Shown here: in pieces, positions 1-63,104 of the stretch
Numbering within the stretch: the stretch's first letter is position 1
Layout: every line of letters starts with the position of its first letter
Source of the DNA: a virus
Direction: 5' to 3' (one strand)
DNA: 64,000 bases
Virus record (IMG/VR): IMGVR_UViG_3300047497_000079
Coordinates: 1-64,000 of that record
Made by a program: the position numbers and the translations under genes
The notes under the pieces: model-generated
Seen by the model: only the letters and a program-made list of their open reading frames with translations
What the model was told of the DNA's origin: nothing
Database searches by the model: none

Positions 1-40
1 TGAGGCGGGAATCATCCCCCTCTACAAGGAGGAACTATCT

Positions 41-325
41 ATGGACAATGTAACTGTTGTGATCGCGACCGTTTATTCAGGCGGAGCGTCGGAATCCGGA
101 AGCTGTGTCGTTTCCGAACATACTGATCTGGAAGAGGCCAAGGTTACGGCCCGCGATGAAGCTCTGGAGCGCTTTGCTGAAACGCACGGCGATCTGGAAC
201 CACAGCATCGCATCATTCTAGGATGCCTAACCTTCCCCGAACCAGAAGTGAAGACGACCGTCTTCGACGCGGTCCTTCCACAACAAACCCCAGATAGCGA
301 GCCGGTGACGGTTCAACTTTCATAG
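41..325 (+). CDS. Hypothetical small protein (94 aa)
   Basis: Unrecognised soluble acidic protein. The ATG follows a strong Shine-Dalgarno (AAGGAGG, 9 bases upstream). Residues 20-55 are Glu/Ala/Arg-rich and probably helical; the C-terminal 35 residues look extended. It is the first complete gene of a run of short plus-strand genes sharing the hairpin-plus-motif leader. The first bases of the window hold the end of the preceding leader. No signal peptide or membrane segment. Function unknown. Confidence 0.75.
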   Translation: MDNVTVVIATVYSGGASESGSCVVSEHTDLEEAKVTARDEALERFAETHGDLEPQHRIILGCLTFPEPEVKTTVFDAVLPQQTPDSEPVTVQLS

Positions 326-403
326 AGTTCACCCAGGGGGCGGGTCCGAAAGGACCCGTCTCATCAGAGGAGAGTAATTAGCCAATTTTAACAAGGAGGT
401 GTT

Positions 404-673
404 GTGAAAAATGGCAAACGTTCTGATTCCCTCCCAAAGGAAACGGGACCACCAAAAGAACTGATTACTATTGATCAGATAGACCAACTAATCACAGAAC
501 TTGACGACGATTTCATTCGCGCTCTTAGCGAAGAATATGACGAACCCCTCGACTATTCAGATGTCCTTGAGCCGACCATCTTTGGTCAGTGGCTCATCCC
601 GCTTCTGTTAGGTGAGTTCATCGTATTGACCATCGCCATTGTCCTCTGGATCGTGTGGCTATCTGATCGCTGA
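404..673 (+). CDS. Small membrane-anchored hypothetical protein (89 aa)
   Basis: GTG start placed by AAGGAGG 6-7 bases upstream. The N-terminal 60 residues are polar and acidic; residues about 63-85 (LIPLLLGEFIVLTIAIVLWI) form one hydrophobic helix followed by a short charged tail, so a C-terminally anchored inner-membrane protein is predicted. No family recognised. It is followed by a hairpin with a T-rich tail, the only clear intrinsic terminator in the first part of the array. Confidence 0.75.
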   Translation: MKNGKRSDSLPKETGPPKELITIDQIDQLITELDDDFIRALSEEYDEPLDYSDVLEPTIFGQWLIPLLLGEFIVLTIAIVLWIVWLSDR

Positions 674-681
674 AATCGTTG

Positions 682-716
682 CCTCGGGGGAGAGATTCCC
701 CGAGGTTTTATTTTAT
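682..716 (+). terminator. Intrinsic terminator
   Basis: CCTCGGGG and CCCCGAGG form an 8-bp stem around an 8-base loop, followed by TTTTATTTTATTG. Confidence 0.7.
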
Positions 717-754
717 TGTTTAGCCAATTTAGGCACATAAGGAGGAGTATTAAG

Positions 755-970
755 ATGCGTTATTCGGACAAAAGCGAACTCAAATATTTGATCAATGAGT
801 ATGGCTTTGACGCCGTTATCGCTGCTCTGACTGAGGTCGTGGCGGCTAAGTCTGAACAGATGAGAGACATCAATAAAACACGCTCAAAGGAATGGGGAAG
901 AGCTTCGGCTCGTCTGACAGAATTGCGCGTGTGGTGTGACCGTTTCGGTCCAGACTCTAACTGCCGCTGA
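755..970 (+). CDS. Hypothetical small protein (71 aa)
   Basis: The ATG at 755 follows AAGGAGGAG; an in-frame upstream extension lacks a ribosome-binding site and would cover the leader motif, so it was rejected. Predicted mostly helical, basic C-terminal half. No recognised family. Confidence 0.7.
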   Translation: MRYSDKSELKYLINEYGFDAVIAALTEVVAAKSEQMRDINKTRSKEWGRASARLTELRVWCDRFGPDSNCR

Positions 971-1024
971 TCATTGGAGGGGGATACAACCCCCTCTGTT
1001 AGCCAATTTTACAAGGAGGTAAAC

Positions 1025-1318
1025 ATGGCACCAGACCTTAACATGCTCGTCATTGAATCCAAATTCCCCCTCGCTTCAACGCCCGTTGGAAAGTTTGCCG
1101 GCGAAAGAGTTGCCGTCGCAATTGCTTATGAGCGAGTCCGGGCCGGTGAAGGTGAATCGTTTGGTTCACCTCTTCATTTCGGCTTCTACGGCCGCGTCAT
1201 GGTTTGTGACGATCCGATCTGTTTCGTCGAGGATGAGTACGGCGTGAATGAAATCACGGAAGAGGAGTATCGAAGCGCCGAAGAGGAGGAGTTCCTTGAA
1301 TTTGATGACGGCGCATGA
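1025..1318 (+). CDS. Hypothetical acidic-tailed protein (97 aa)
   Basis: Start set by ACAAGGAGGT 4 bases upstream of the ATG. The N-terminal two thirds has alternating hydrophobic and charged residues; the last 25 residues are very acidic (runs of Glu). Unrecognised. A DNA-mimic-like role could be imagined from the acidic tail, but nothing supports it directly. Confidence 0.72.
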   Translation: MAPDLNMLVIESKFPLASTPVGKFAGERVAVAIAYERVRAGEGESFGSPLHFGFYGRVMVCDDPICFVEDEYGVNEITEEEYRSAEEEEFLEFDDGA

Positions 1319-1387
1319 AACTGGTATTTAAAGCCAAGGAGGGGTTCGCCCCTCCGAGGCGTTTGTCCATTTTGATAGGAGTATTTA

Positions 1388-1597
1388 ATGGATCAGAGAA
1401 CGCTTGACCACCTGGATAGGTGGCTTAATTCGGAGATGTCGCGTTTGCCCGAACACACGCGGACCAAGTTCCGCAAGGTTATGATCGCCGTCTACAATGA
1501 AGACCCCGACCATTGGGGGAACACTTCGTGGTGGCGATGCTTCGACGAAGCGACATTTAGGATCGAGCGCGAAGCCATCAGGGAAAGTCAAGTTTAA
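1388..1597 (+). CDS. Hypothetical small protein (69 aa)
   Basis: ATG preceded by ATAGGAGTATTTA. The gene holds several Trp and His residues in its second half (DHWGNTSWWRCF). Unrecognised; typical member of the small-gene array. A longer minus-strand frame across it is a shadow. Confidence 0.7.
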   Translation: MDQRTLDHLDRWLNSEMSRLPEHTRTKFRKVMIAVYNEDPDHWGNTSWWRCFDEATFRIEREAIRESQV

Positions 1598-1657
1598 AGC
1601 CGAGGGGGCGGAAGCCCCCGTGGCGTTAGTCCATTTAACCACAAGGAGGTATTGGAC

Positions 1658-1888
1658 ATGTCTAACGATCACACGAACGGAGTTACCACTATGAGCAGAG
1701 CCGAACAACTCAAGGCTGAACTTGCCGAAGCCCGCGCCGCCGAGAAGGCGAAGAAGGAAGCCGAGCGTAAAGCAAAGCGCGAGGCCAAAGAAGCGGCCGC
1801 GAAGGCAAAGAAGCAGGAAGCCATTGACTGGCATCTTGAGAAATTGGCGAAGCTCGGTGCTGATTGCCACTGTGAGATTAAAGACTAA
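1658..1888 (+). CDS. Lys/Ala/Glu-rich coiled-coil protein (76 aa)
   Basis: ATG at 1658 follows ACAAGGAGGTATTGGAC. Residues 12-55 are almost entirely Ala, Glu, Lys and Arg with heptad-like spacing, predicting one long charged helix or coiled coil; the C-terminus carries a CHC motif. A second in-frame ATG at 1691 is a possible internal start. Highly charged helices can bind nucleic acid or bridge proteins; the actual role is unknown. Confidence 0.7.
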   Translation: MSNDHTNGVTTMSRAEQLKAELAEARAAEKAKKEAERKAKREAKEAAAKAKKQEAIDWHLEKLAKLGADCHCEIKD

Positions 1889-1952
1889 CCAGTATTGCCG
1901 AGGGGGAGCGATCCCCCGAGGCGTTTGTCCATTTAGGACCAAGGAGGTAATC

Positions 1953-2015
1953 ATGGCACAAGTAGAAGTAAACGCTATCGGAGGTACACATGAAGAAACA
2001 GATAGGCGTGATTGA
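1953..2015 (+). pseudogene. Truncated duplicate of the 2543 gene start (20-codon frame)
   Basis: Leader and first eight codons (MAQVEVNA) are nearly identical to those of the gene at 2543, but the frame ends after 20 codons. The sequence just before 2220 again resembles the 3' end of the 2543 gene (ATGAGA...TATTGAAAGCCAA), so an ancestral paralogue seems to have had its middle replaced by the unrelated gene at 1990-2169. It may now act only as an upstream frame delivering ribosomes to that gene. Confidence 0.55.
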
Positions 2016-2169
2016 TTGGTCGCGGTGGAATGACCGCCCGTGGTGGATCAAGAACGGGTTCAAGACGCGGGAGGAGGCGTGGGATGCATACCGGGGCAAT
2101 CCCGAAGCTTCCGAGAGCGCCGCTCATCAAGCCGAGTGGATCAGGAAGCGCCGCCAGTCTAAATCATGA
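1990..2169 (+). CDS. Hypothetical Trp-rich small protein (59 aa)
   Basis: Short basic protein rich in Trp (seven in 59 residues) starting with MKKQIGVIDWSRW. Its Shine-Dalgarno (CGGAGGTACAC) lies inside the truncated duplicate of the next paralogue, and the ATG overlaps that frame. Unrecognised; the Trp/Arg pattern would suit a small protein- or nucleic-acid-binding domain, but that is a guess. Confidence 0.65.
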   Translation: MKKQIGVIDWSRWNDRPWWIKNGFKTREEAWDAYRGNPEASESAAHQAEWIRKRRQSKS

Positions 2170-2267
2170 ACCACGAGTCTAAACTTGCATCCATGAGATC
2201 TTATTGAAAGCCAAGGGGGTCTTCGGACCCCCGAGGCGTTTGTCCATTTAGGACCAAGGAGGTAATC

Positions 2268-2501
2268 ATGCCCTATGTTGTGCAGATGCAATACTATGTT
2301 CAGGGTGACAAATATACTCACTTAGTGCATAGCAAGAGTACAAATAAACTCTTGGTATATCCAGATCATAAATCGGCAAAAGTGTGGCCCGACGAGGCTC
2401 TTTTTCCGAAGGTTGATTGCGATAGAGCACCTGAGTTCTCGCTCGTGGACGTTAGATCTTTGCCAAAGCTTTTACAGAAGGCAATTGCAGAGGGGGCGTA
2501 A
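2268..2501 (+). CDS. Hypothetical small protein (77 aa)
   Basis: Start follows CCAAGGAGGTAATC in a leader identical to the one at 1936-1952. Predicted beta-rich N-terminus (MPYVVQMQYYVQGDKYTHLV). No family recognised. Confidence 0.7.
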   Translation: MPYVVQMQYYVQGDKYTHLVHSKSTNKLLVYPDHKSAKVWPDEALFPKVDCDRAPEFSLVDVRSLPKLLQKAIAEGA

Positions 2502-2542
2502 GCCCCCAAAGCGTTAGGTCATACTGACCAAAGGAGGTATTC

Positions 2543-2845
2543 ATGGCACAAGTAGAAGTAAACGCATATCCAATTCATGAAAGGTTTCCGGGCGGACATA
2601 CGATTTCGTTCGACCTCACAAGCCGGTCCCCATCCAAACGCTACGACATCAAGAATGTCGACGATGCGAAGGCAGCTCTGGCTGACTTTGCAATGGAGAT
2701 GGCGAAGACCCAGAAGGCTTGGGAGGTATCGGTACGTTTCGATAAACGTTCTGGTCGTAAACCTGCTGGATTTGATAAAGCGGACAGGGCACGCGAATTA
2801 CAATGCCTCGTCAATCTCGAACTTGCACCTATGAGAAAATATTGA
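2543..2845 (+). CDS. Hypothetical protein (100 aa), intact copy of a duplicated cassette
   Basis: Starts MAQVEVNAYPIHERF; the leader and first codons are repeated at 1936-1976. Basic C-terminal half with several Lys and Arg residues. Unrecognised. The duplication shows that genes of this array share ends that could recombine. Confidence 0.72.
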   Translation: MAQVEVNAYPIHERFPGGHTISFDLTSRSPSKRYDIKNVDDAKAALADFAMEMAKTQKAWEVSVRFDKRSGRKPAGFDKADRARELQCLVNLELAPMRKY

Positions 2846-2902
2846 AAGCCAAGGAGGGGTTCGCCCCTCCGAGGCATTAGTCAATTTAAACAGGAGGACA
2901 CT

Positions 2903-3346
2903 ATGTTATCAGACACAGATAGGGGATGTATACGTAGGCACTTCACAGTACCCCCGCATATTGAAGCCTGTAGTAGGGCTATCTGCTATGACTTGTTATT
3001 CGGACCTTCTTGGTCACTTATCCCTTCCAACGACATCACCAAGTACAACGCGGATTGTCTCGCGACTTTCCGTGCGGACCTTGAGGATGATTTTGAAGAG
3101 GGAGACGTGATCGAGGAAACGTATGTCGGTCAGGTGGCTCAAGCCCTACGGGACTTCATAGATTCCCTGCCCTCTGAGATTTATTATGACAAACAATTGG
3201 GTGAGGTCCTCGATAAGGAACCTGAAGGCTATGAAGACGAAGATGGTGAGTATTATGAACCCGACTGGGATGATTATTACAAGCTTGATAGCGCCGACAT
3301 AGTCGAGGTTCTCTTCGGGAAAACAATCGCCCGAGAGTTCAAATAG
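2903..3346 (+). CDS. Hypothetical acidic protein (147 aa)
   Basis: One of the longer products in the array. Strongly acidic in residues 50-65 and 95-120 (Asp/Glu/Tyr-rich, EPEGYEDEDGEYYEPDWDDY). ATG is preceded by ACAGGAGGACACT. No recognised domain. Acidic surfaces of this type occur in phage DNA-mimic inhibitors, but nothing specific supports that here. Confidence 0.72.
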   Translation: MLSDTDRGCIRRHFTVPPHIEACSRAICYDLLFGPSWSLIPSNDITKYNADCLATFRADLEDDFEEGDVIEETYVGQVAQALRDFIDSLPSEIYYDKQLGEVLDKEPEGYEDEDGEYYEPDWDDYYKLDSADIVEVLFGKTIAREFK

Positions 3347-3404
3347 GAGAGGAGGTCTTCGGACCTCCGATCCGTTTGTTCATTTAGAACCAAAGGAGAT
3401 AACA

Positions 3405-3590
3405 ATGAAGAAGATGTCCCAAAAGGATATGTTCTATAAAGCCAGTCGAGACAACGCGGCTTTGGATGCTGAATTTTCTGAAATGGTGAATGGCCCAAAC
3501 CCGATTACGAAAGCGGAATTGGAACGTCTCATTCAGAAACGCCCTACACTCTGGGGCCGTTGGAAGTCCTGGCTCGACAAACTCCAGTAA
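3405..3590 (+). CDS. Hypothetical small protein (61 aa)
   Basis: ATG after CCAAAGGAGATAACA. Basic, mostly helical by composition; ends RPTLWGRWKSWLDKLQ, an amphipathic Trp-containing helix. Unrecognised. Confidence 0.68.
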   Translation: MKKMSQKDMFYKASRDNAALDAEFSEMVNGPNPITKAELERLIQKRPTLWGRWKSWLDKLQ

Positions 3591-3640
3591 TTGGTAGGGG
3601 TACGGCCCCTACCGTTAGCCAATTTTCAAAGGAGGCAAGA

Positions 3641-3871
3641 ATGCACAACGAATGTTGTGAACATAATGAAAAATGCAACTGGGCAGTAGGTTCCAATTTT
3701 CCAGGGTACCTTCCAGAAAATCACGCTGAACACTTTTCTGATTGGTATGACGCTTATGAGTATTTCATGCAGCTTTCAGAAGATTTACCGGTCGTTGAAC
3801 CAGAGAAAGACATCGAAACCATTGGTAAAGATGGAATGATCTACTGGCTGGTTGCTATTGGAAGGGGTTAA
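3641..3871 (+). CDS. Hypothetical Cys/His-containing protein (76 aa)
   Basis: ATG at 3641 follows AAAGGAGGCAAGA; an upstream in-frame extension overlaps the previous gene and was rejected. The N-terminus MHNECCEHNEKCNW clusters three Cys and two His and may bind a metal. Rest acidic. Unrecognised. Confidence 0.68.
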   Translation: MHNECCEHNEKCNWAVGSNFPGYLPENHAEHFSDWYDAYEYFMQLSEDLPVVEPEKDIETIGKDGMIYWLVAIGRG

Positions 3872-3913
3872 CCCCCTTCCGTTTGTCCATTTTCAGGACT
3901 ACAGGAGGTAACT

Positions 3914-4183
3914 ATGCGCAATCGTTTTGATAAAGCTCTCTATGCTCAGGCAGGAGCGGGCAATCCTTCGGGCATTGCTCTGGGAATAATCGAAGCATGT
4001 GAAGAAATCAGAAAAGACCCACACTGGTCAACGGAAGGGATCTGCAAAGACCCTGCGGTACGCCTCTTGGTGCATCAGTTGGCTAGCATCTGCGAAGTGT
4101 GGGAGATGTTTTACGACTTCGATGAATACGCTCGTCTCATGAATGAGTGCAGGAAGCTTTCGAGCGAAAACGTCGTTACATAA
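3914..4183 (+). CDS. Hypothetical protein (89 aa)
   Basis: ATG after ACAGGAGGTAACT. Mixed helical composition, three Cys residues, no membrane segment. Followed by a long hairpin (AAGGGGCGGC/GCCGCCCCTT, 4196-4219). Unrecognised. Confidence 0.7.
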   Translation: MRNRFDKALYAQAGAGNPSGIALGIIEACEEIRKDPHWSTEGICKDPAVRLLVHQLASICEVWEMFYDFDEYARLMNECRKLSSENVVT

Positions 4184-4257
4184 CCGAATAAGACAAGGGG
4201 CGGCCGTCGCCGCCCCTTGTCTGGCTTTTAGCCTTATTTCAAGGCAAGGAGGTATCT

Positions 4258-4485
4258 ATGAGCATTAACTTTTCTTCTGAACCAGATGGGTGTGGTTTTA
4301 TCTATCAGCGCACGCACAATTGCGGTTTCGAACAGTACAATATCGCCGTTCCAGGCCGGGGCTATGGACCCCATCCTGGTCCTGGCTTTAAGGTGTTGTA
4401 CGGTGGTGTCGAGATCGGCGAGGCTGCTACGCTCGACGAGGCCAAGACCATTGCCAACGCTCACTGGCAGAAGATACAAAACTAG
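4258..4485 (+). CDS. Hypothetical protein (75 aa)
   Basis: ATG after GCAAGGAGGTATCT. Gly- and Pro-rich middle (PGRGYGPHPGPGFKVLYGG) then a helical tail ending in WQKIQN. The pattern resembles short single-domain phage proteins that modify a viral or host target, but no family is recognised. Confidence 0.68.
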   Translation: MSINFSSEPDGCGFIYQRTHNCGFEQYNIAVPGRGYGPHPGPGFKVLYGGVEIGEAATLDEAKTIANAHWQKIQN

Positions 4486-4554
4486 CTCAGAGGCATGGGG
4501 TTCACATCCCATGCCGGCCTTCGGCTTTTAGCCACTTTTAACAAGGAGGTAAAC

Positions 4555-4965
4555 ATGTACTTCTCATGTATCTACGCCGTTGACTGCCATCCAGACAATC
4601 TCTACGGAGCCGAATTTTATAAACCTGATATCGGTGAGTGGACGGAAACGGAGGGTGACGATCAGTATCAGAAGTGGTGCGCGATCTTAACTAAGGACGA
4701 GTTCCTTAAATGGGTCAGGGGAAATTTCTCCGTTGGCAGCCTTTCGGAAACGATGGGAATGCTTGGTGCTCCTGGCTTTGGTATTGGTCATGCACCTGCA
4801 TGGTGCTTAACCTCAGGCGAGGAAGATTGGTCTGGCTCTCTGTATTTTTGCCCTCTCATTCCGATGCAACGAAAAACAGGTGAAGCCGAATTTTATAAAG
4901 TGGCTGACCGGGATGAAAACTGGAAGCGCCTAAAACGCGCGGTAATCAACATGATGCGGAAGTAA
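4555..4965 (+). CDS. Hypothetical protein (136 aa)
   Basis: ATG at 4555 follows ACAAGGAGGTAAAC; upstream in-frame codons cross the leader hairpin. Mixed alpha/beta composition, five Cys residues. Unrecognised. Confidence 0.7.
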   Translation: MYFSCIYAVDCHPDNLYGAEFYKPDIGEWTETEGDDQYQKWCAILTKDEFLKWVRGNFSVGSLSETMGMLGAPGFGIGHAPAWCLTSGEEDWSGSLYFCPLIPMQRKTGEAEFYKVADRDENWKRLKRAVINMMRK

Positions 4966-5020
4966 TTGTAAGCTCGGGGTTCGCCCCGAGTGTTAGCCTA
5001 TATTAAACCAGGAGGTAAAC

Positions 5021-5263
5021 ATGACTTATTTTAATGGCACTCATCCTAGCTTACCGACAGAGAACGTACGAGGTGAACCCATTTCACGTAAGCCAATGAC
5101 ACGGATCTATTGTGATGCCTGTGCGGAGGCGGCAATACCGCTTCCACCAGCAGGTCCACTCACAAGCGATCCGATGGTCGGCCGGCACTGGAATACAGAG
5201 TTCATCTGGTGTCCTTATTACGGTGGGGATGCCAAGTGCCAAGTTTGTAATGAGCCATGCTAA
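5021..5263 (+). CDS. Putative zinc-binding small protein (80 aa)
   Basis: Two Cys pairs flank the second half (YCDAC near residue 30; CPYYGGDAKCQVCNEPC at the end), suggesting a small zinc ribbon. ATG after CCAGGAGGTAAAC. Partner and function unknown. Confidence 0.68.
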   Translation: MTYFNGTHPSLPTENVRGEPISRKPMTRIYCDACAEAAIPLPPAGPLTSDPMVGRHWNTEFIWCPYYGGDAKCQVCNEPC

Positions 5264-5379
5264 TTGTAAGCTAGGGGTTCACCCCTAGTCTTAGTAAATT
5301 TTCTTACTCCAATGCGAAACCTAATACGTCGTACCGGGGTGGTGCTCGGTGCTTGAAGATGCAGCCATGGAGTAAACGA

Positions 5380-5601
5380 GTGGGCCAATCTAAAATGTAC
5401 CAACCGGAAGTCGACGCTATCGTCGATAAGGTTCGAAAGACGAAGAGCTGCGAACGAACGACATTACCAGATGGTGCCGAGGTATATGCCTATCCTTATG
5501 CGGATGGCTCGGTAGCATGGGGTATCAATCGTCCCAGCGATCACGTCAACATCTTACGCGGCATTCGTGGCCCGGATGGTCAGGACAGGAACACTTATTG
5601 A
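5380..5601 (+). CDS. Hypothetical protein (73 aa)
   Basis: GTG start at 5380 chosen because the conserved leader supplies ATGGAG 8-10 bases upstream, exactly as in the next cassette. Upstream TTG/ATG codons lie inside the leader. Ends RGIRGPDGQDRNTY. Unrecognised. Confidence 0.62.
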   Translation: MGQSKMYQPEVDAIVDKVRKTKSCERTTLPDGAEVYAYPYADGSVAWGINRPSDHVNILRGIRGPDGQDRNTY

Positions 5602-5700
5602 TCTAAGCGGGGGCTTCGGCCTCCGCCCTCCAATGCGAAACGCAATAGCGTAGTACCGAGGTGGTGCTCGGTGCTTGAAGATGCAACCATGGAGGTAAAA

Positions 5701-5814: not shown

Positions 5815-5939
5815 CATTCTCTAATGCAACTACTTGATAGCCATGGAGGTAACCCCTCCTAGAATCGAAAAGCGCCAGGCCGACCCCCTGGCGTCTTCAT
5901 GCCGGGGTGGTGCTCGGCGTCTGATGAAAGGAGTAGATA

Positions 5940-6188
5940 ATGCCAATCACTAAGCAGGAACTTGCTATGGTGGCAGACTTGCTCGAAGAGATCGAGAGGG
6001 CGTCCCGTGAGGCACAGGCGCTGTTGATGAAAGCAGGGTATCACACGATGCCCTCGCCCATCGGCAAGGCCAATCATTTCCTCATGGACCATGTCGGTAT
6101 TGGTCATCCGGACTTTCCGGAACTTGCAAGTCTGTACAGTCCACCAAGCAAGCTTGCCGATGAGCTAAGGCATTTGCGTCAGAACTAA
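5940..6188 (+). CDS. Hypothetical helical protein (82 aa)
   Basis: ATG after AAAGGAGTAGATA. N-terminal 40 residues form an acidic amphipathic helix; centre includes His residues. Preceded by a partial second-type leader. Unrecognised. Confidence 0.68.
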   Translation: MPITKQELAMVADLLEEIERASREAQALLMKAGYHTMPSPIGKANHFLMDHVGIGHPDFPELASLYSPPSKLADELRHLRQN

Positions 6189-16833: not shown

Positions 16834-18705
16834 ATGGCTCAACTACCTATTTCCGACCTTGATTTCGAGACTCTGCGCTCGAATCTGTTGGCCTCTTTTC
16901 AAAGCAATACTGTTTTCCGGGACTACAACTTCGACGGTTCTGCTTTATCAATACTGCTAGATGTCCTAGCACACGACAGCTATTACAAAGCCTATTATTT
17001 AAATATGCTGTTCAATGAAGCATTCATTGATTCAGCCCTTCTGCGTGGACCTATGGTTTCAGCGGCCAAGGCCGTCGGTTATACACCAAAGTCGGCTCGT
17101 TCGGCCGTAGCCGTGCTCGACCTAGCACTGGTCCCATACTCTTTGTCGACGAACTTTGTCACCGTCCCCGCAGGCACAGCTTTCACCGGACAGGTCAATA
17201 ACCAGAACTACACCTTCTCGACCACCCAGGATTACACCGTAAACAAAAACGCGAACGGCGCTTACATGGTGACGGTTGCGGTGTACGAGGGCGATCCCGT
17301 CGTCCAGACTTATACGGTCCCGGCCTATTCCAACACCCTCACCGTTCCTATCAACAATGCCGGTATCGATGAGACGTCTCTGTCCGTCGTGGTCTTTCCC
17401 AATGCCAACTCCACGACGCAGACGCCATGGACGCGGGTTACGGATGTCCTCGGTGTCACGGCCAACTCGAACGTGTTCTTCTTCCAAGAGAACATGTACG
17501 GCCTCTTCGAGCTTCAGTTCGGCGACGGCGTGCTCGGAGCACAGCCCGAACCCGGTAACGTCATCTCCATCAGCTACACCGTATGCAACACCTCTGCCCC
17601 CAATGGGTGCAAGTTCTTCTCGCTCCCGGCCGCGATCCCGAATGTTGCCATCGCCACGATCAATCTCAACACGCCAGCCACGGGCGGGTCCGACAAGGAG
17701 AGCATCGACTCCATCCGGTTCAACGCCCCGCGCAATTATACCCAGCAGTACCGGAATGTTACGACGGCCGACTACACCCAAGCCATCGTCTCTCAGTTTC
17801 AGAACATCCAGGCCGTCTCGGTATGGGGCGGTGAACACAATACGACGCCCGATTATGGGAAGGTGTATATCTCCGTTAAGCCAACGACGGGCTTTACCCT
17901 GACGGCCTCGCAGAAGAGCCAGATCCAGACGGCCCTTGCGCCCTCAAACGTAATGGCCATCCAGACGGTCTTGATCGATCCCACGTTCAACTATATCGTT
18001 CCGCAGGTGAATGTGTGGTTCAATTCGCTGAAGACTTCGCTGTCGGCGACCCAGATCCTTGCCAATATTTCCGCGACCGTTCAGACCTTCGAGACCAACA
18101 CGCTCGGCACCTTCCAATCGCCTTTTTACTTTTCACGGTTCGCGGCGGCCATCGATGGCACCGATCCCTCGATCCTCGGAAACGATTCACGGATACTGGT
18201 CCAGAAGCGGTTCACGCCCCAGCTAAACTCGTCGTTCTCCTATGCCTTGAACTTCCATCAGGCCGTGGTCCATCCCTATGACGGGTATCTGGGAGCGATC
18301 ACGTCGACGGGCTTTACGGTACCGCTTTACGCGCAGACCCTGTACATCACTGATGACGGGTATGGCAATCTCGTCACTTACTATCTGTCGGGTACGAGCA
18401 AGGTCTATGTGGCCCCGGACGGCACCAACAAAAACATAGGCACGGTCAATTACAGTACTGGTCTATTGCAATTCACGCTTCCCGTTGCGAGCGTCGTCGA
18501 TGGATCAGGGGAAATCCAGATCAACATGGCCCCGGTGCTTAGGGATGTGACGCCAGGTTTCAACGAAATCTTGCTCATTACCCAGTGCAACATCAACCTA
18601 TATGATAGCGCTTCCGGCAATCTCGTCACTTCCGGCTCGGTCAATACAGCGGGCGATACGACGACCCTACAGCAGAACGGGTTTGCCACGGCCATCATCA
18701 TATGA
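16834..18705 (+). CDS. gp6: Baseplate wedge protein, gp6-like (623 aa)
   Basis: N-terminus LDFETLRSNLLASFQSN followed by DYNFDGSALSILLDVLAHDS and YLNMLFNEAFIDSA is the hallmark of gp6/Baseplate-J-type wedge proteins; length is close to T4 gp6 (660 aa). gp6 forms the ring linking wedges around the hub. Overlaps the following gene by 4 bases (ATGA), so the two are made in register. A large minus-strand frame inside it is a codon-composition shadow. Confidence 0.85.
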   Translation: MAQLPISDLDFETLRSNLLASFQSNTVFRDYNFDGSALSILLDVLAHDSYYKAYYLNMLFNEAFIDSALLRGPMVSAAKAVGYTPKSARSAVAVLDLALVPYSLSTNFVTVPAGTAFTGQVNNQNYTFSTTQDYTVNKNANGAYMVTVAVYEGDPVVQTYTVPAYSNTLTVPINNAGIDETSLSVVVFPNANSTTQTPWTRVTDVLGVTANSNVFFFQENMYGLFELQFGDGVLGAQPEPGNVISISYTVCNTSAPNGCKFFSLPAAIPNVAIATINLNTPATGGSDKESIDSIRFNAPRNYTQQYRNVTTADYTQAIVSQFQNIQAVSVWGGEHNTTPDYGKVYISVKPTTGFTLTASQKSQIQTALAPSNVMAIQTVLIDPTFNYIVPQVNVWFNSLKTSLSATQILANISATVQTFETNTLGTFQSPFYFSRFAAAIDGTDPSILGNDSRILVQKRFTPQLNSSFSYALNFHQAVVHPYDGYLGAITSTGFTVPLYAQTLYITDDGYGNLVTYYLSGTSKVYVAPDGTNKNIGTVNYSTGLLQFTLPVASVVDGSGEIQINMAPVLRDVTPGFNEILLITQCNINLYDSASGNLVTSGSVNTAGDTTTLQQNGFATAIII

Positions 18706-36436: not shown

Positions 36437-36510
36437 TGGTTCACCCTCATGGATTCGAACCACGGTTTTCTGATCCAAAGTCAGACGTCCTACCGCTAGA
36501 CGAAGGGTGA
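36437..36510 (-). tRNA. tRNA-Gln (TTG)
   Basis: Full cloverleaf on the minus strand: TCACCCT/AGGGTGA acceptor, GGTTCGAATCC T arm, anticodon loop CTTTGGA giving UUG, and an encoded CCA end. Would read CAA codons. Confidence 0.92.
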
Positions 36511-37241: not shown

Positions 37242-37453
37242 CCTTGCTCTGTGGCGATTTCAACGACGATATCCTTCAAGATGTAGGCCATATCGTCGAG
37301 CGCATCATACAAATTATAGATCTCAGTCTGAAACTCGTTCTCCCACCGGCTCGTCAGCTCCTCCAACTTGCTGGAAATGTTATCCTGTGTGGTCCTGACG
37401 CGCTTCTCCAATTCGAGCAGTGTCTCTGTGTTATGCTGTATTCTGAACTCCAT
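37187..37453 (-). CDS. Coiled-coil small protein (88 aa)
   Basis: Residues 8-65 are heptad-like (LLELEKRVRTTQDNISSKLE). Start overlaps the integrase C-terminus by 23 bases, so the two are in one operon. May be an accessory factor of the integration module; no family recognised. Confidence 0.6.
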   Translation of the reverse strand: MEFRIQHNTETLLELEKRVRTTQDNISSKLEELTSRWENEFQTEIYNLYDALDDMAYILKDIVVEIATEQGFGIGAEVTYTWAATGAT

Positions 37454-38726
37454 ACTTCATGACAAAGGCTTCCTCCCTAAATTTAATGATCATTTGTTCC
37501 CATTTGTTTAACGCTTCAACTTTTTCATCGAGATACTCATATAAGTTGTAAACTGCCGCAATCTGAGAATGAGCGACAACTCCCCCAGCAAGCGTATGAT
37601 CGAGGATGGACTCGGTAACTTCGCGGGGAACTCCCAATTTAGGGCGTGCAAAAGTTGTCGAGAAAGAACGGCGAAAATCATGCGGGGTCCAGTCTTCTGC
37701 CCATAATAGCTGCTTCTGTTCGCTAAGGGTGCCACACCGCCTTTTGAGTTCGAACAATCCTTTTGAAAAGCCAGAGAACGGATTCTTATCGTTCCCCTCT
37801 GCCGGAAAAACATAAGGCGATGTTGTCCGCTCTATCGTCTTCATGATTTCGAATGCCGTTGGCGAAAGTGGTAATAATAGCTTCTTACCAGGGGATCGCT
37901 GCTTGGAATGTACAAAGATTTGGCGATCCTCTAAATGAACGTTCTCCCATAGCAACTGCGTTATTTGTCCGCGTCTTGCACCAGTGAGCATAAGTAAGCG
38001 AACAATGTCTCCGTAATGTTTACCCTCATTCGACATCTCTTCAGCAGCAAGATAGATTAATCCAAGTTCCGAGTTAGACACAACTCTGCTTCTTGGAATG
38101 TATTCGGAAACTTTTTTGATCTTAGCAGCGGGAGACTCCTTTAATTGTTTTGCGTCGACTGCCCACGAAAAGAAACGCTTGATGTCCGAGACTGCATGAT
38201 TTGCGGCACCATTTTTACCCTTACTCTTGAGATCATCAATGATCTTCTGGATGTCCTGTTCGGTAACAGCGTTGATATCTTTTTCACCAAGGGAAAGACA
38301 AAATTTCCTATTCAACGTCCAGGATAACTCTTGAACTGATCGTGGTCGCATTTTTGGTTTTGCATAGTTTTCGATATACTCATCTACTACCGCTGAGAAG
38401 GTTTGCTTTTCCTCGGGAGTAGACTCCATGACCTGTGATTTGGGTCGGTATTCACCATCGGTAATGCGAAGCTTAATTGTTTTTGCCTCGGCTCTGGCGT
38501 CTGCCAGTTTCATTTCGGGATAACGACCTACCGTGGCTTTCACACTCTTACCTTCGGGTGTATGGCCTACCACAATGTATGCAATGGCCCCTTTTTGAGA
38601 CACACGCACTCCGAAACCTTTTAAGGTTTTGTCCCAAATGAAATATTGCTTACCCGTTTTCTTAAGATTTTGCAGAATTGTCTGTTGCAGATCCCGCCTA
38701 TTATTATCCATCTTTTCGTTCTTCAT
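37431..38726 (-). CDS. int: Tyrosine-recombinase integrase (431 aa)
   Basis: P4/DUF4102-like organisation: N-terminal arm-binding domain (LKGFGVRVSQKGAIAYIVV, about 36-90), core-binding domain (about 108-200), catalytic domain with Arg in TGARRGQ (251-252), Lys275, TPHDFRR (H349, R352), H377 and the nucleophile Tyr393 in AVYNLYEYLD. All catalytic residues are present and length is typical, so it should be active. SD AAGGAG precedes the ATG; a TTGACG hexamer lies about 50 bases upstream. It lies about 200 bases from a tRNA-His 3' fragment, the expected crossover site. Confidence 0.9.
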   Translation of the reverse strand: MKNEKMDNNRRDLQQTILQNLKKTGKQYFIWDKTLKGFGVRVSQKGAIAYIVVGHTPEGKSVKATVGRYPEMKLADARAEAKTIKLRITDGEYRPKSQVMESTPEEKQTFSAVVDEYIENYAKPKMRPRSVQELSWTLNRKFCLSLGEKDINAVTEQDIQKIIDDLKSKGKNGAANHAVSDIKRFFSWAVDAKQLKESPAAKIKKVSEYIPRSRVVSNSELGLIYLAAEEMSNEGKHYGDIVRLLMLTGARRGQITQLLWENVHLEDRQIFVHSKQRSPGKKLLLPLSPTAFEIMKTIERTTSPYVFPAEGNDKNPFSGFSKGLFELKRRCGTLSEQKQLLWAEDWTPHDFRRSFSTTFARPKLGVPREVTESILDHTLAGGVVAHSQIAAVYNLYEYLDEKVEALNKWEQMIIKFREEAFVMKYGVQNTA

Positions 38727-42904: not shown

Positions 42905-44551
42905 CTACTTTCCAAAATATGTTGACAGCTCGTCGAAATGGACGGGAGCGTAATTGGTCATTTCCATCGACACGCATGCATAACGTGGATCTTTCAGCGT
43001 CTTGTAGTGCAGGTGGCCATGCACACAGCGGGTGTATCTTCCATCCTCAAACTCTTCGGTGTGTACGGGCATATGAGCCGCGACTATCCCTTCTTCCTTA
43101 AAGTGCCGCCAGTACATCACCTTTTCGAAGTAGTCCATTAGGGACGTTCCCTTCAGGCTATCGTGATTACCGATACAGAGACGTTTCTTTCCCTTTAAGC
43201 GGCGCGCAATGTTCTTGGTAAAATTCTGCCAGTCCATTGTCACGTCCCCGAGGAAGTAGACGTGGTCCACGTCGTTCACACGCGCGTTGTGTTGGGAGAT
43301 CATGAACTCATCCATCTCCTCGACGGTTTTGAACCCTGGCCGTAAAAGGCTGCCGTCGTCCCGATAGAACGGTGACGTTATCATTTTGGCGTGCCCGAAG
43401 TGATGATCGGCCGCGAAGAAGATGTTCACGGTATAACAGGTTCCGATCAATGACCGCATCGCATCGACGCTGGTCTGCGAACCCGTCCGTCCGCGCATAA
43501 AATTGAGGACCTCTTGCATTGGGTTCTGAGAATCCAGAGCTGCGAAGGCGATGGTTCGGATGTCGCGGGGGACATCCTTAAGCACCTCTACGGCGAATGT
43601 TTTCCTGTCCACATGGCGGGCTTTTTCGAGAAGAGAGGCGATCTGAAGGGCTATGTTTCTCATCTGCTCCTCAACGGCGTTCCGATATGTCACGATGTGC
43701 TCCTGGTCCTCCTCACTGAGCAACGGCAACACGTCGTCGATCTCACCCATCAAGATCAAGGCAAGCACGTTCTTTTCGTAGACCGTAGAGTCTTTTGCCC
43801 TGTGTTTGAGGATGTACTCTTCGCCCTTACATTTCATAAGCTGACGTAGGGGTTCATGTTCAAAATCCGGATCGAACATGAGCACATACCCTTCTTGCCC
43901 CTTCAGCTCACGAACGTGGGAAAGAAAGGCCGCGCATTCACCCCACTGGGTCTCCATGGCTGATACCCGATCAACACCAATGTGCCTCGCGAATAAATCC
44001 AGTCCTTTATAGGAAAGATAGCCACCCGTATTGATGAAACGAGCCCCTATGAGGGTCAACTTAGGCTCTTCGTACCTAATGACAATTCTGTTGGAAGGGG
44101 CCGTAAACTCAAAGATTGGAGTCACGCCTGTCTCAATGATATCCGTACACGCCTTAATAAAACCTGGTGTCGCACACAGTTCCTCGGCCATTAGAGAGGT
44201 GTCGGTAATCCCAGCCCGCGTCATGAGTCTGCATTTGCCCATAACCATTGCGGCATGAACCATCGACCCGTCCAGCTTATCCATAATCACATGGGGCTTA
44301 GACAGGTCGATCATACCAGGCTGAGTTTCTGCCCTCTCTCCGATGTTGAAGAACTTGTGAAAGGGCCGGCCGATGATCTTTCCATTACCGTCAAACTTGA
44401 TTCCCCGGAATTCACGGCGAATAGGATCGTCGAAACTATCGCTCAGGCCGATCTGATAATCGACGGAGATATAGCCCGGTGCCCTGTGTATACGAAACTC
44501 CGTGCGGCCTTCTATGGCAGGAAGAACATCATTTAAGGATTCAATAAGCAT
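42905..44551 (-). CDS. RNA ligase 1 fused to a metallophosphoesterase (548 aa)
   Basis: N-terminal two thirds is a T4 Rnl1-type RNA ligase: FRGIKF (48-53), RPFHKFFNIGE (62-72), motif I with nucleophile Lys92 (MDKLDGS), FEFTAPSNRIVI (147-158, T4 FEFVAPTNRIVL), EGYVLMF (220-226) and motif V MKCKGEEYILKHR (239-251). From about residue 375 a calcineurin-like phosphoesterase follows: FAADHHFGH (D382, H384), GDV (435-437), GNHD (461-464), AAHMPVH (491-497) and HGHLH (511-515). The pair would heal and seal broken tRNA, the phosphoesterase perhaps replacing the PseT phosphatase. I know of no common fusion of these two. AGGAAGTA precedes the ATG. Confidence 0.87.
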   Translation of the reverse strand: MLIESLNDVLPAIEGRTEFRIHRAPGYISVDYQIGLSDSFDDPIRREFRGIKFDGNGKIIGRPFHKFFNIGERAETQPGMIDLSKPHVIMDKLDGSMVHAAMVMGKCRLMTRAGITDTSLMAEELCATPGFIKACTDIIETGVTPIFEFTAPSNRIVIRYEEPKLTLIGARFINTGGYLSYKGLDLFARHIGVDRVSAMETQWGECAAFLSHVRELKGQEGYVLMFDPDFEHEPLRQLMKCKGEEYILKHRAKDSTVYEKNVLALILMGEIDDVLPLLSEEDQEHIVTYRNAVEEQMRNIALQIASLLEKARHVDRKTFAVEVLKDVPRDIRTIAFAALDSQNPMQEVLNFMRGRTGSQTSVDAMRSLIGTCYTVNIFFAADHHFGHAKMITSPFYRDDGSLLRPGFKTVEEMDEFMISQHNARVNDVDHVYFLGDVTMDWQNFTKNIARRLKGKKRLCIGNHDSLKGTSLMDYFEKVMYWRHFKEEGIVAAHMPVHTEEFEDGRYTRCVHGHLHYKTLKDPRYACVSMEMTNYAPVHFDELSTYFGK

Positions 44552-61700: not shown

Positions 61701-63104
61701 ATGATCATTGATGTTAACCGCCCCATCACGGGAAAGACTCTCATTGACCTCGGATACAAGTCTGGTCCCTGGTTTTCCCGTGCCATAGCCGAAGCCGAAG
61801 CGGCGCGGAAGCTTCATCGCCCCGCTGACGAGATCCGCCTCATCATCGACAGCTACGTTCCGGCACCGCCGACGCCGCTACACCCCATGGGGTTTCGGCC
61901 GTTCCATCTCAATATCGAAGCCGTGAACGAAGGAGATGCCGATAACATCAACAAGGTGTCCGTGGCGATGGACCATATCATGCGCGTTCCTACCGTCGTT
62001 GCAGGGGCCATCATGCCCGATGCCTGTCCCACGGGAGGTCCGGGAGAGATCCCCGTAGGCGGCGTTGTAGCCACGCAGGGGGCCATTCATCCGGGGTGGC
62101 ACTCCTCTGACATCTGTTGCTCTCTTGCCATGTCCGTGCTCGGAGACGTCGATCCGAAGGCCGTTTTGGACGCGGGTATGGCCCTCACTCATTTTGGACC
62201 TGGGGGCCGGCCGCGGTCGGGACAGATCCGGCCCAATCTCGAATTCCTGGAACGGATGAACGAGAACAGCTTCATGAAGCACGTCGTATCCGAAGCCATT
62301 GAGCACAACGCCACGCAGGGCGACGGCAACCACTTTTTCTATGTGGGACGGGTAGCTTCCACGGGCCACACGGCCATCGTCACCCACCATGGCTCACGAA
62401 AGCCCGGTGCCCTCCTGTATAAGATGGGTATGGTCCTGGCCGAGAAGAACCGTAAGAAGATCTGCCCCGAGGCCCCGCCCGTCGCGGGCTGGATCGACGC
62501 CGACACTTACGAAGGCGAGGAATACTGGAACGCCCTGCAACTGATCCGTGAATGGACCAAGAACAACCACATGGTCATTCATCACCTCGTATCCGGGCGG
62601 CTCAAGGCAAAGATCCGCGATCAGATGTGGAACGAACATAATTTTATTTTTCGTAAGACGGACGGGCACTTCTACCACGCGAAGGGGGCGACACCTGCTT
62701 ACAAGGGATATGCCGCCGACGAAACGGGCGTAACGCTGATCCCCCTGAACATGGCCGAACCTATCCTCATGGTCGAGGGCCTCGATGCTCCTAATGGTCT
62801 CGGCTTTTCTCCTCACGGGGCAGGCCGGAACTATTCCCGTACGGCGTTCATGAACTCGTTAGGACCTAACGCCGATAAGAAGGAGATCGTCGCGGAACAG
62901 ACCAAGGGCATAGACGCCCGTTTCTTCTGTGGTGTTCCCGATCTGAGCGAGCTGCCCGGAGCCTACAAGAATGCCTCCACAGTTCGTTCGCTCATCGACA
63001 AGTTCGGACTTGCCAAGGTCGTCGATACCGTCGAACCTTACGGTTGTATCATGGCCGGGGACTGGCAGGTGAACGCGCCGTGGCGAAAGAAGAAAGGTAG
63101 ATGA
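61701..63104 (+). CDS. rtcB: RtcB-type RNA ligase, divergent (467 aa)
   Basis: RtcB landmarks in order: GGVVATQGAIHPGW and SSDICCSLAMS (metal ligands, about 120-144), ATQGDGNHFFYVG (204-216), VTHHGSRKPG (227-236), DGHFYHAKGATPA (321-333) and SPHGAGRNYSR with His372 as the expected guanylylated residue. RtcB joins 2',3'-cyclic phosphate or 3'-phosphate RNA ends to 5'-OH, as left by many tRNA-cleaving toxins. Several motifs differ from the cellular form (CCSL for CGM). Complements the Rnl1-type ligase, which needs 5'-phosphate. Adjacent tRNA-Ser supports a tRNA-repair role. Confidence 0.9.
   Translation: MIIDVNRPITGKTLIDLGYKSGPWFSRAIAEAEAARKLHRPADEIRLIIDSYVPAPPTPLHPMGFRPFHLNIEAVNEGDADNINKVSVAMDHIMRVPTVVAGAIMPDACPTGGPGEIPVGGVVATQGAIHPGWHSSDICCSLAMSVLGDVDPKAVLDAGMALTHFGPGGRPRSGQIRPNLEFLERMNENSFMKHVVSEAIEHNATQGDGNHFFYVGRVASTGHTAIVTHHGSRKPGALLYKMGMVLAEKNRKKICPEAPPVAGWIDADTYEGEEYWNALQLIREWTKNNHMVIHHLVSGRLKAKIRDQMWNEHNFIFRKTDGHFYHAKGATPAYKGYAADETGVTLIPLNMAEPILMVEGLDAPNGLGFSPHGAGRNYSRTAFMNSLGPNADKKEIVAEQTKGIDARFFCGVPDLSELPGAYKNASTVRSLIDKFGLAKVVDTVEPYGCIMAGDWQVNAPWRKKKGR

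What the first reader, a model, noticed from the sequence alone, without database searches (positions are those of the whole stretch)
1936..2880. Gene replacement inside a duplicated cassette
The leader and first codons of the 2543 gene are repeated at 1936-1976 and the end (ATGAGA...TATTGAAAGCCAA) at about 2190-2220, but the middle is a different gene (1990-2169) in another frame. This captures the array exchanging a gene body between common ends.
Basis: seen in the sequence. Interest (0 to 1): 0.62.

Follow-up and report, generated by a model that had tools for sequence, protein, structure and literature searches.

The report
Phage gene cassette with swapped middle
In an array of tiny genes in a T4-like phage, one gene slot keeps the beginning and end of a neighbouring gene but its middle has been replaced by an unrelated small gene with its own ribosome-binding site, a small fossil of how such phages reshuffle genes.

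Summary
The window lies in an 81.6-kb fragment of a T4-like myovirus. Positions 1-5300 hold 16 small genes with no known relatives. They are separated by a repeated spacer: stop codon, G+C hairpin, GTTWGYCMATTT box, AGGAGGTA, start codon. Cassette A (1894-2250) matches cassette C (2484-2888) at both ends, including coding DNA: 23 identical bases from C's start codon and about 23 of 30 bases at C's 3' end. Among 136 pairs of array genes, only A and C share coding ends. The bodies between are unrelated in DNA and in every frame. A's outer frame stops after 20 codons. Inside it lies a 59-aa ORF (1990-2169) with its own array-type ribosome-binding site, GGAGGTACACATG. Its stop overlaps the ATG of the 3' remnant, which is still in A's original frame. 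Best reading: a duplicated C-type cassette whose middle was replaced by a small gene taken, with its RBS, from an array-type cassette. The replacement crossed inside coding sequence, so it did not use the array's usual common ends. No relative with this locus could be found, so direction and mechanism remain inferred. It resembles PeSL shuffling in T4-type phages, but no promoter was found.

The parts
1894..1955 (+). Hairpin spacer and leader of cassette A (GCC-clamped hairpin, GTTTGTCCATTT box, AGGAGGTAATCATG); 1913-1955 identical to leader of cassette B
1953..2015 (+). 5' remnant of a C-type gene: strong RBS, first 8 codons matching C (MAQVEVNA), then stop after 20 codons
1980..1992 (+). Array-type ribosome-binding site GGAGGTACACATG inside the remnant; one of only ten GGAGGTANNNATG sites in the 81.6-kb record, all in or just after the array (1015-5691)
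1990..2169 (+). Inserted unrelated 59-aa ORF (gene X), +1 frame relative to 1953, GC3 73%, no homologue found
2166..2207 (+). 3' remnant of a C-type gene in the original (1953) frame, MNHESKLASMRSY; its ATG overlaps the stop of gene X (ATGA)
2201..2270 (+). Spacer after A / leader of cassette B, with the stop codon inside the repeated TATTGAAAGCC segment
2268..2501 (+). Cassette B gene, 77 aa, orphan, lies between A and C
2484..2542 (+). Spacer and leader of cassette C
2543..2845 (+). Cassette C gene, intact 100-aa ORF whose two ends are the ones found in A; orphan
2820..2888 (+). 3' end of C plus following hairpin spacer, 80% identical to 2182-2250
41..5294 (+). The small-gene array: 16 genes separated by stop-hairpin-box-RBS-start spacers; starts at the left end of the record, so probably incomplete

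Best explanation
Cassette A is a second copy of the C-type cassette in which the middle of the gene has been replaced by an unrelated small ORF (X, 59 aa). X kept its own array-type ribosome-binding site (GGAGGTACACATG), so it was probably lifted from another array-type cassette of this or a related phage, without that cassette's hairpin. What is left of the C-type gene is an 8-codon start, now part of a 20-codon upstream ORF, and a 13-codon tail in the original frame. X is most likely translated from its own RBS, possibly coupled to the upstream ORF that overlaps it. Shown: homologous ends, unrelated body, in-frame remnants, second RBS. Inferred: (a) duplication by recombination between the near-identical hairpin-leader spacers; (b) replacement by non-homologous or very short-homology crossovers inside the coding sequence; (c) the C to A direction, because C is the intact ORF.
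For: Both coding ends match C far above shuffles and uniquely among 136 gene pairs. The body shows no similarity in DNA or in any frame. The two remnants are in the same frame, 213 nt apart. All ten GGAGGTANNNATG sites in the 81.6-kb record, 1980 included, lie at 1015-5691 on the + strand. Exchange through the spacers is suggested elsewhere: a 43-nt perfect A/B leader match and an 88% match of 1325-1381 to 2840-2896. Stop and start codons lie in or beside the repeated spacers.
Against: No relative shows the full paralogue or the donor of X. Coding evidence for X is modest: its codon score is within the range of the other small genes and better than the other frames tested under the structural-gene model, but an ORF of at least 59 codons arises in 15% of shuffles of the middle. 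X has no homologue. The in-frame relation of the remnants has a 1 in 3 chance. The C to A direction rests on ORF integrity alone.
Confidence: 0.72

Rival explanations
1. A is a decaying pseudogene: a duplicated C-type gene whose middle was scrambled by indels and drift, with no new gene inside.
For: The outer frame is broken; X has no homologue; an ORF of this length is not rare by chance in that stretch (P 0.15).
Against: The 23-nt start is identical and the tail nearly so while the middle has no detectable similarity, a pattern drift does not give. An array-type RBS stands at the right distance before X.
Confidence: 0.13
2. Reverse polarity: the shared ends are old modules (or a gene-conversion tract) laid around X, or C's body is the newcomer and A the older arrangement.
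For: The leader of A was itself converted to or from B (43/43 identity), so short patchwork exchange does seem to happen here.
Against: C is one uninterrupted ORF including both ends. In A the ends are out of frame with X and have no evident use. Two separate conversions confined to coding ends would be needed.
Confidence: 0.1
3. A is a working regulated unit: the 20-codon ORF (MAQVEVNA...) acts as a leader peptide, or a programmed +1 frameshift joins it to X; the shared start is kept by selection.
For: Strong RBS, 20-codon ORF overlapping X by 26 nt, stop/start overlap at 2166-2169.
Against: X has its own RBS, so neither is needed. The shared 3' remnant is unexplained. No other cassette has such a leader.
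Confidence: 0.05

Closest known systems
PeSLs (promoter early stem-loops) of T4-type phages: Arbiol et al. 2010 (doi 10.1093/gbe/evq006) and Comeau et al. 2014 (doi 10.1093/gbe/evu129); not held here, known through PMC4503421 and PMC3950731
   Same: Repeated stem-loop elements at high density between small, mostly unknown genes of a T4-like phage, proposed to promote shuffling of genes by recombination.
   Different: No sigma-70-type promoter in the spacers. The element here runs from stop codon through hairpin and conserved box to RBS and start codon. The A event crossed inside coding sequence rather than at the elements.
Haloarchaeal virus HGTV-1 motif (TATA-like box and inverted repeat before most left-end ORFs), as described in PMC3950731
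   Same: Inverted repeat plus conserved box before successive small ORFs, proposed to help shuffling.
   Different: Archaeal virus with a TATA-like box; no sequence relation was tested.
Repeat regions of Campylobacter group II phages CP21/CP220 (PMC4546147)
   Same: Repeats in T4-related phages that flank and exchange genes or modules.
   Different: Those are 1-2.9 kb regions of direct or inverted repeats bounding large modules, not one hairpin per gene.

Membership tests
PeSL element (T4-type phages) | Host is a T4-type phage | tested here: met
   gp6-like baseplate protein 36% to T4-like phages; T4-type terminase and Portal_T4 domains
PeSL element (T4-type phages) | Stem-loop between successive small genes, in many copies | tested here: met
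   17 hairpin-before-RBS sites in 1-5300, 2 in the rest of the window; stems keep pairing with different base pairs
PeSL element (T4-type phages) | Early promoter in the same element | tested here: inconclusive
   No sigma-70-like site on the + strand in 1-5300; host and its promoter type are unknown
PeSL element (T4-type phages) | Stem-loop acts as a transcription terminator | tested here: inconclusive
   Only the 681-706 hairpin among the spacers has a clear T tract on the + strand; most are followed by GTTTGTCCATTT instead
PeSL element (T4-type phages) | Related phages differ by gene swaps bounded by the elements | not testable with these tools
   No relative carrying the array was found; the nearest named phage by the baseplate protein (vB_OspM_OC) has 2 such sites in 222 kb

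The most novel reading that the evidence does not exclude
The stop-hairpin-box-RBS-start spacers are a cassette-exchange system that swaps complete ORFs precisely from start to stop codon. Cassette A is a rare mis-aimed product in which a unit carrying only its RBS (no hairpin) entered a neighbour's coding sequence and was kept because it brought its own translation start.
Probability: 0.2. Interest if true: 0.5.

Novelty: new variant of a known kind. Interest (0 to 1): 0.36.

Why it matters
Small orphan genes dominate the variable regions of large phages, and how one replaces another is rarely caught in a single sequence. Here the scars show a replacement that crossed inside a gene and brought its own ribosome-binding site, and the surrounding spacers show how ordinary whole-gene exchange could avoid such scars.

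Tried and rejected
Search for relatives: blastn and megablast of the array against 50,697 phage records gave nothing. tblastn of C gave nothing and of X one chance-level hit in phages; X gave nothing in plasmids. IMG/VR scans with C, the 508-aa baseplate protein, gp6 and X gave no relative. A terminase profile found only distant T4-likes, at most 46%. C in GTDB genomes gave no relative. Leader-box patterns in IMG/VR gave no hit or only single hits without arrays. Idea that the middle is a frame-shifted C: rejected. Idea that the repeat at 5307-5376 / 5628-5699 is a second case of shared coding ends: rejected; it is a leader, a type II hammerhead candidate. Pfam, PHROGs and PADLOC gave no significant assignment for X, C or B.

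Full report
Setting. The window is the first 64 kb of an 81,636-base viral record, a linear fragment. It encodes T4-like virion proteins: the gp6-like protein at 16834-18705 is 36% identical to that of Ochrobactrum phage vB_OspM_OC and of Pelagibacter and Methylophilales T4-like phages, and a T4-type terminase and a T4 portal protein lie further on. Nothing in the phage collection matches 1-25000 at the DNA level.

The array. Positions 41-5294 hold 16 small genes on the + strand, and the array starts at the record's edge. The spacers share one plan: stop codon, a G+C hairpin often clamped by an outer GCC/GGC, a GTTWGYCMATTT box, AGGAGGTA, start codon. The hairpins differ in sequence but keep pairing: up to five pair types at one stem position. 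There are 17 hairpin-before-RBS sites in 1-5300 and 2 in the rest of the window; 222 kb of phage OC hold 2. No sigma-70-like promoter was found on the + strand in the array, and most hairpins lack a T tract.

The observation. Cassette A (1894-2250) and cassette C (2484-2888) are alike at both ends: 79% over 87 nt at the 5' side and 80% over 69 nt at the 3' side. This includes coding sequence: 23 identical bases from C's ATG, and a 3' stretch reading LELAPMRKY in C and ESKLASMRSY in A. Shuffle tests put both ends far above chance and the body at chance; more permissive DNA and protein tests agree. No other pair of array genes shares coding ends. Part of the 3' match, from AAAGCCAAGG on, is the general spacer.

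What is in the middle. From 1953 the outer frame reads MAQVEVNAIGGTHEETDRRD and stops. At 1980 stands GGAGGTACACATG, followed by a 59-codon ORF (X, 1990-2169) in the +1 frame. All ten GGAGGTANNNATG sites of the 81.6-kb record lie between 1015 and 5691 on the + strand, so X carries an array-type RBS. The stop of X overlaps an ATG at 2166 that opens the 3' remnant, in the same frame as 1953. X has GC3 of 73%, against 38-68% for the other array genes, and a codon score like the other small genes. An ORF of that length has a chance probability of about 0.15 in that stretch, so the RBS is the stronger evidence that X is a gene.

Interpretation. The simplest account is a second C-type cassette whose middle was replaced by a small gene with its RBS. 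Recombination between spacers is indicated independently by the perfect 43-nt match of the A and B leaders and by spacer pairs at 85-88%. The A replacement is different: its junctions lie within C's coding sequence, so it is not the usual exchange at common ends. Direction (C-type to A) and mechanism are inferred.

Comparison with known systems. PeSLs of T4-type phages are promoter-plus-stem-loop elements said to mediate shuffling of genes (as cited in PMC4503421, and PMC3950731; the two original papers were not held). The array works like that, but the promoter part was not found and the terminator part is unclear, so membership is not claimed.

Side observation. Just downstream, at 5312-5370, 5633-5692 and 5863-5942, are three type II hammerhead ribozyme candidates, below Rfam's gathering score (30-32 against 37 bits). 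In the predicted folds their outer stems pair a CUCC-like strand with the GGAG of the next gene's RBS. A triple hammerhead arrangement flanking small phage-related genes is known in Agrobacterium (PMC3088659).

Noticed in passing
window 5312-5370, 5633-5692, 5863-5942 (+): Three type II hammerhead ribozyme candidates in a row between small genes (Rfam RF02276, 30-32 bits, below the gathering score of 37). The third has the canonical CUGAUGA core; the first two read CUUGAAGA. Predicted folds pair UCC-type strands upstream with the GGAG of the next gene's RBS, so self-cleavage could free the RBS.
   Followed up: partly
L004:9560-12457 and L004:14036-17116 (record 71559-74456 and 76035-79115): Both the T4-type terminase large subunit and the T4-type portal protein are interrupted by intein-like sequences with LAGLIDADG domains.
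   Followed up: partly
window 37431-38726 (-), with tRNA-Gln at 36437-36510 (-): A full-length tyrosine integrase with arm-binding domain close to a tRNA gene, in a T4-like phage fragment; unusual for this phage type.
   Followed up: no
window 61701-63104 (+) and 42905-44551 (-): RtcB-type RNA ligase and a T4 RNA ligase 1-like protein. RtcB joins the kind of ends that hammerhead ribozymes produce.
   Followed up: no
window 1-40: The small-gene array begins at the very edge of the record, so its true extent is unknown.
   Followed up: no
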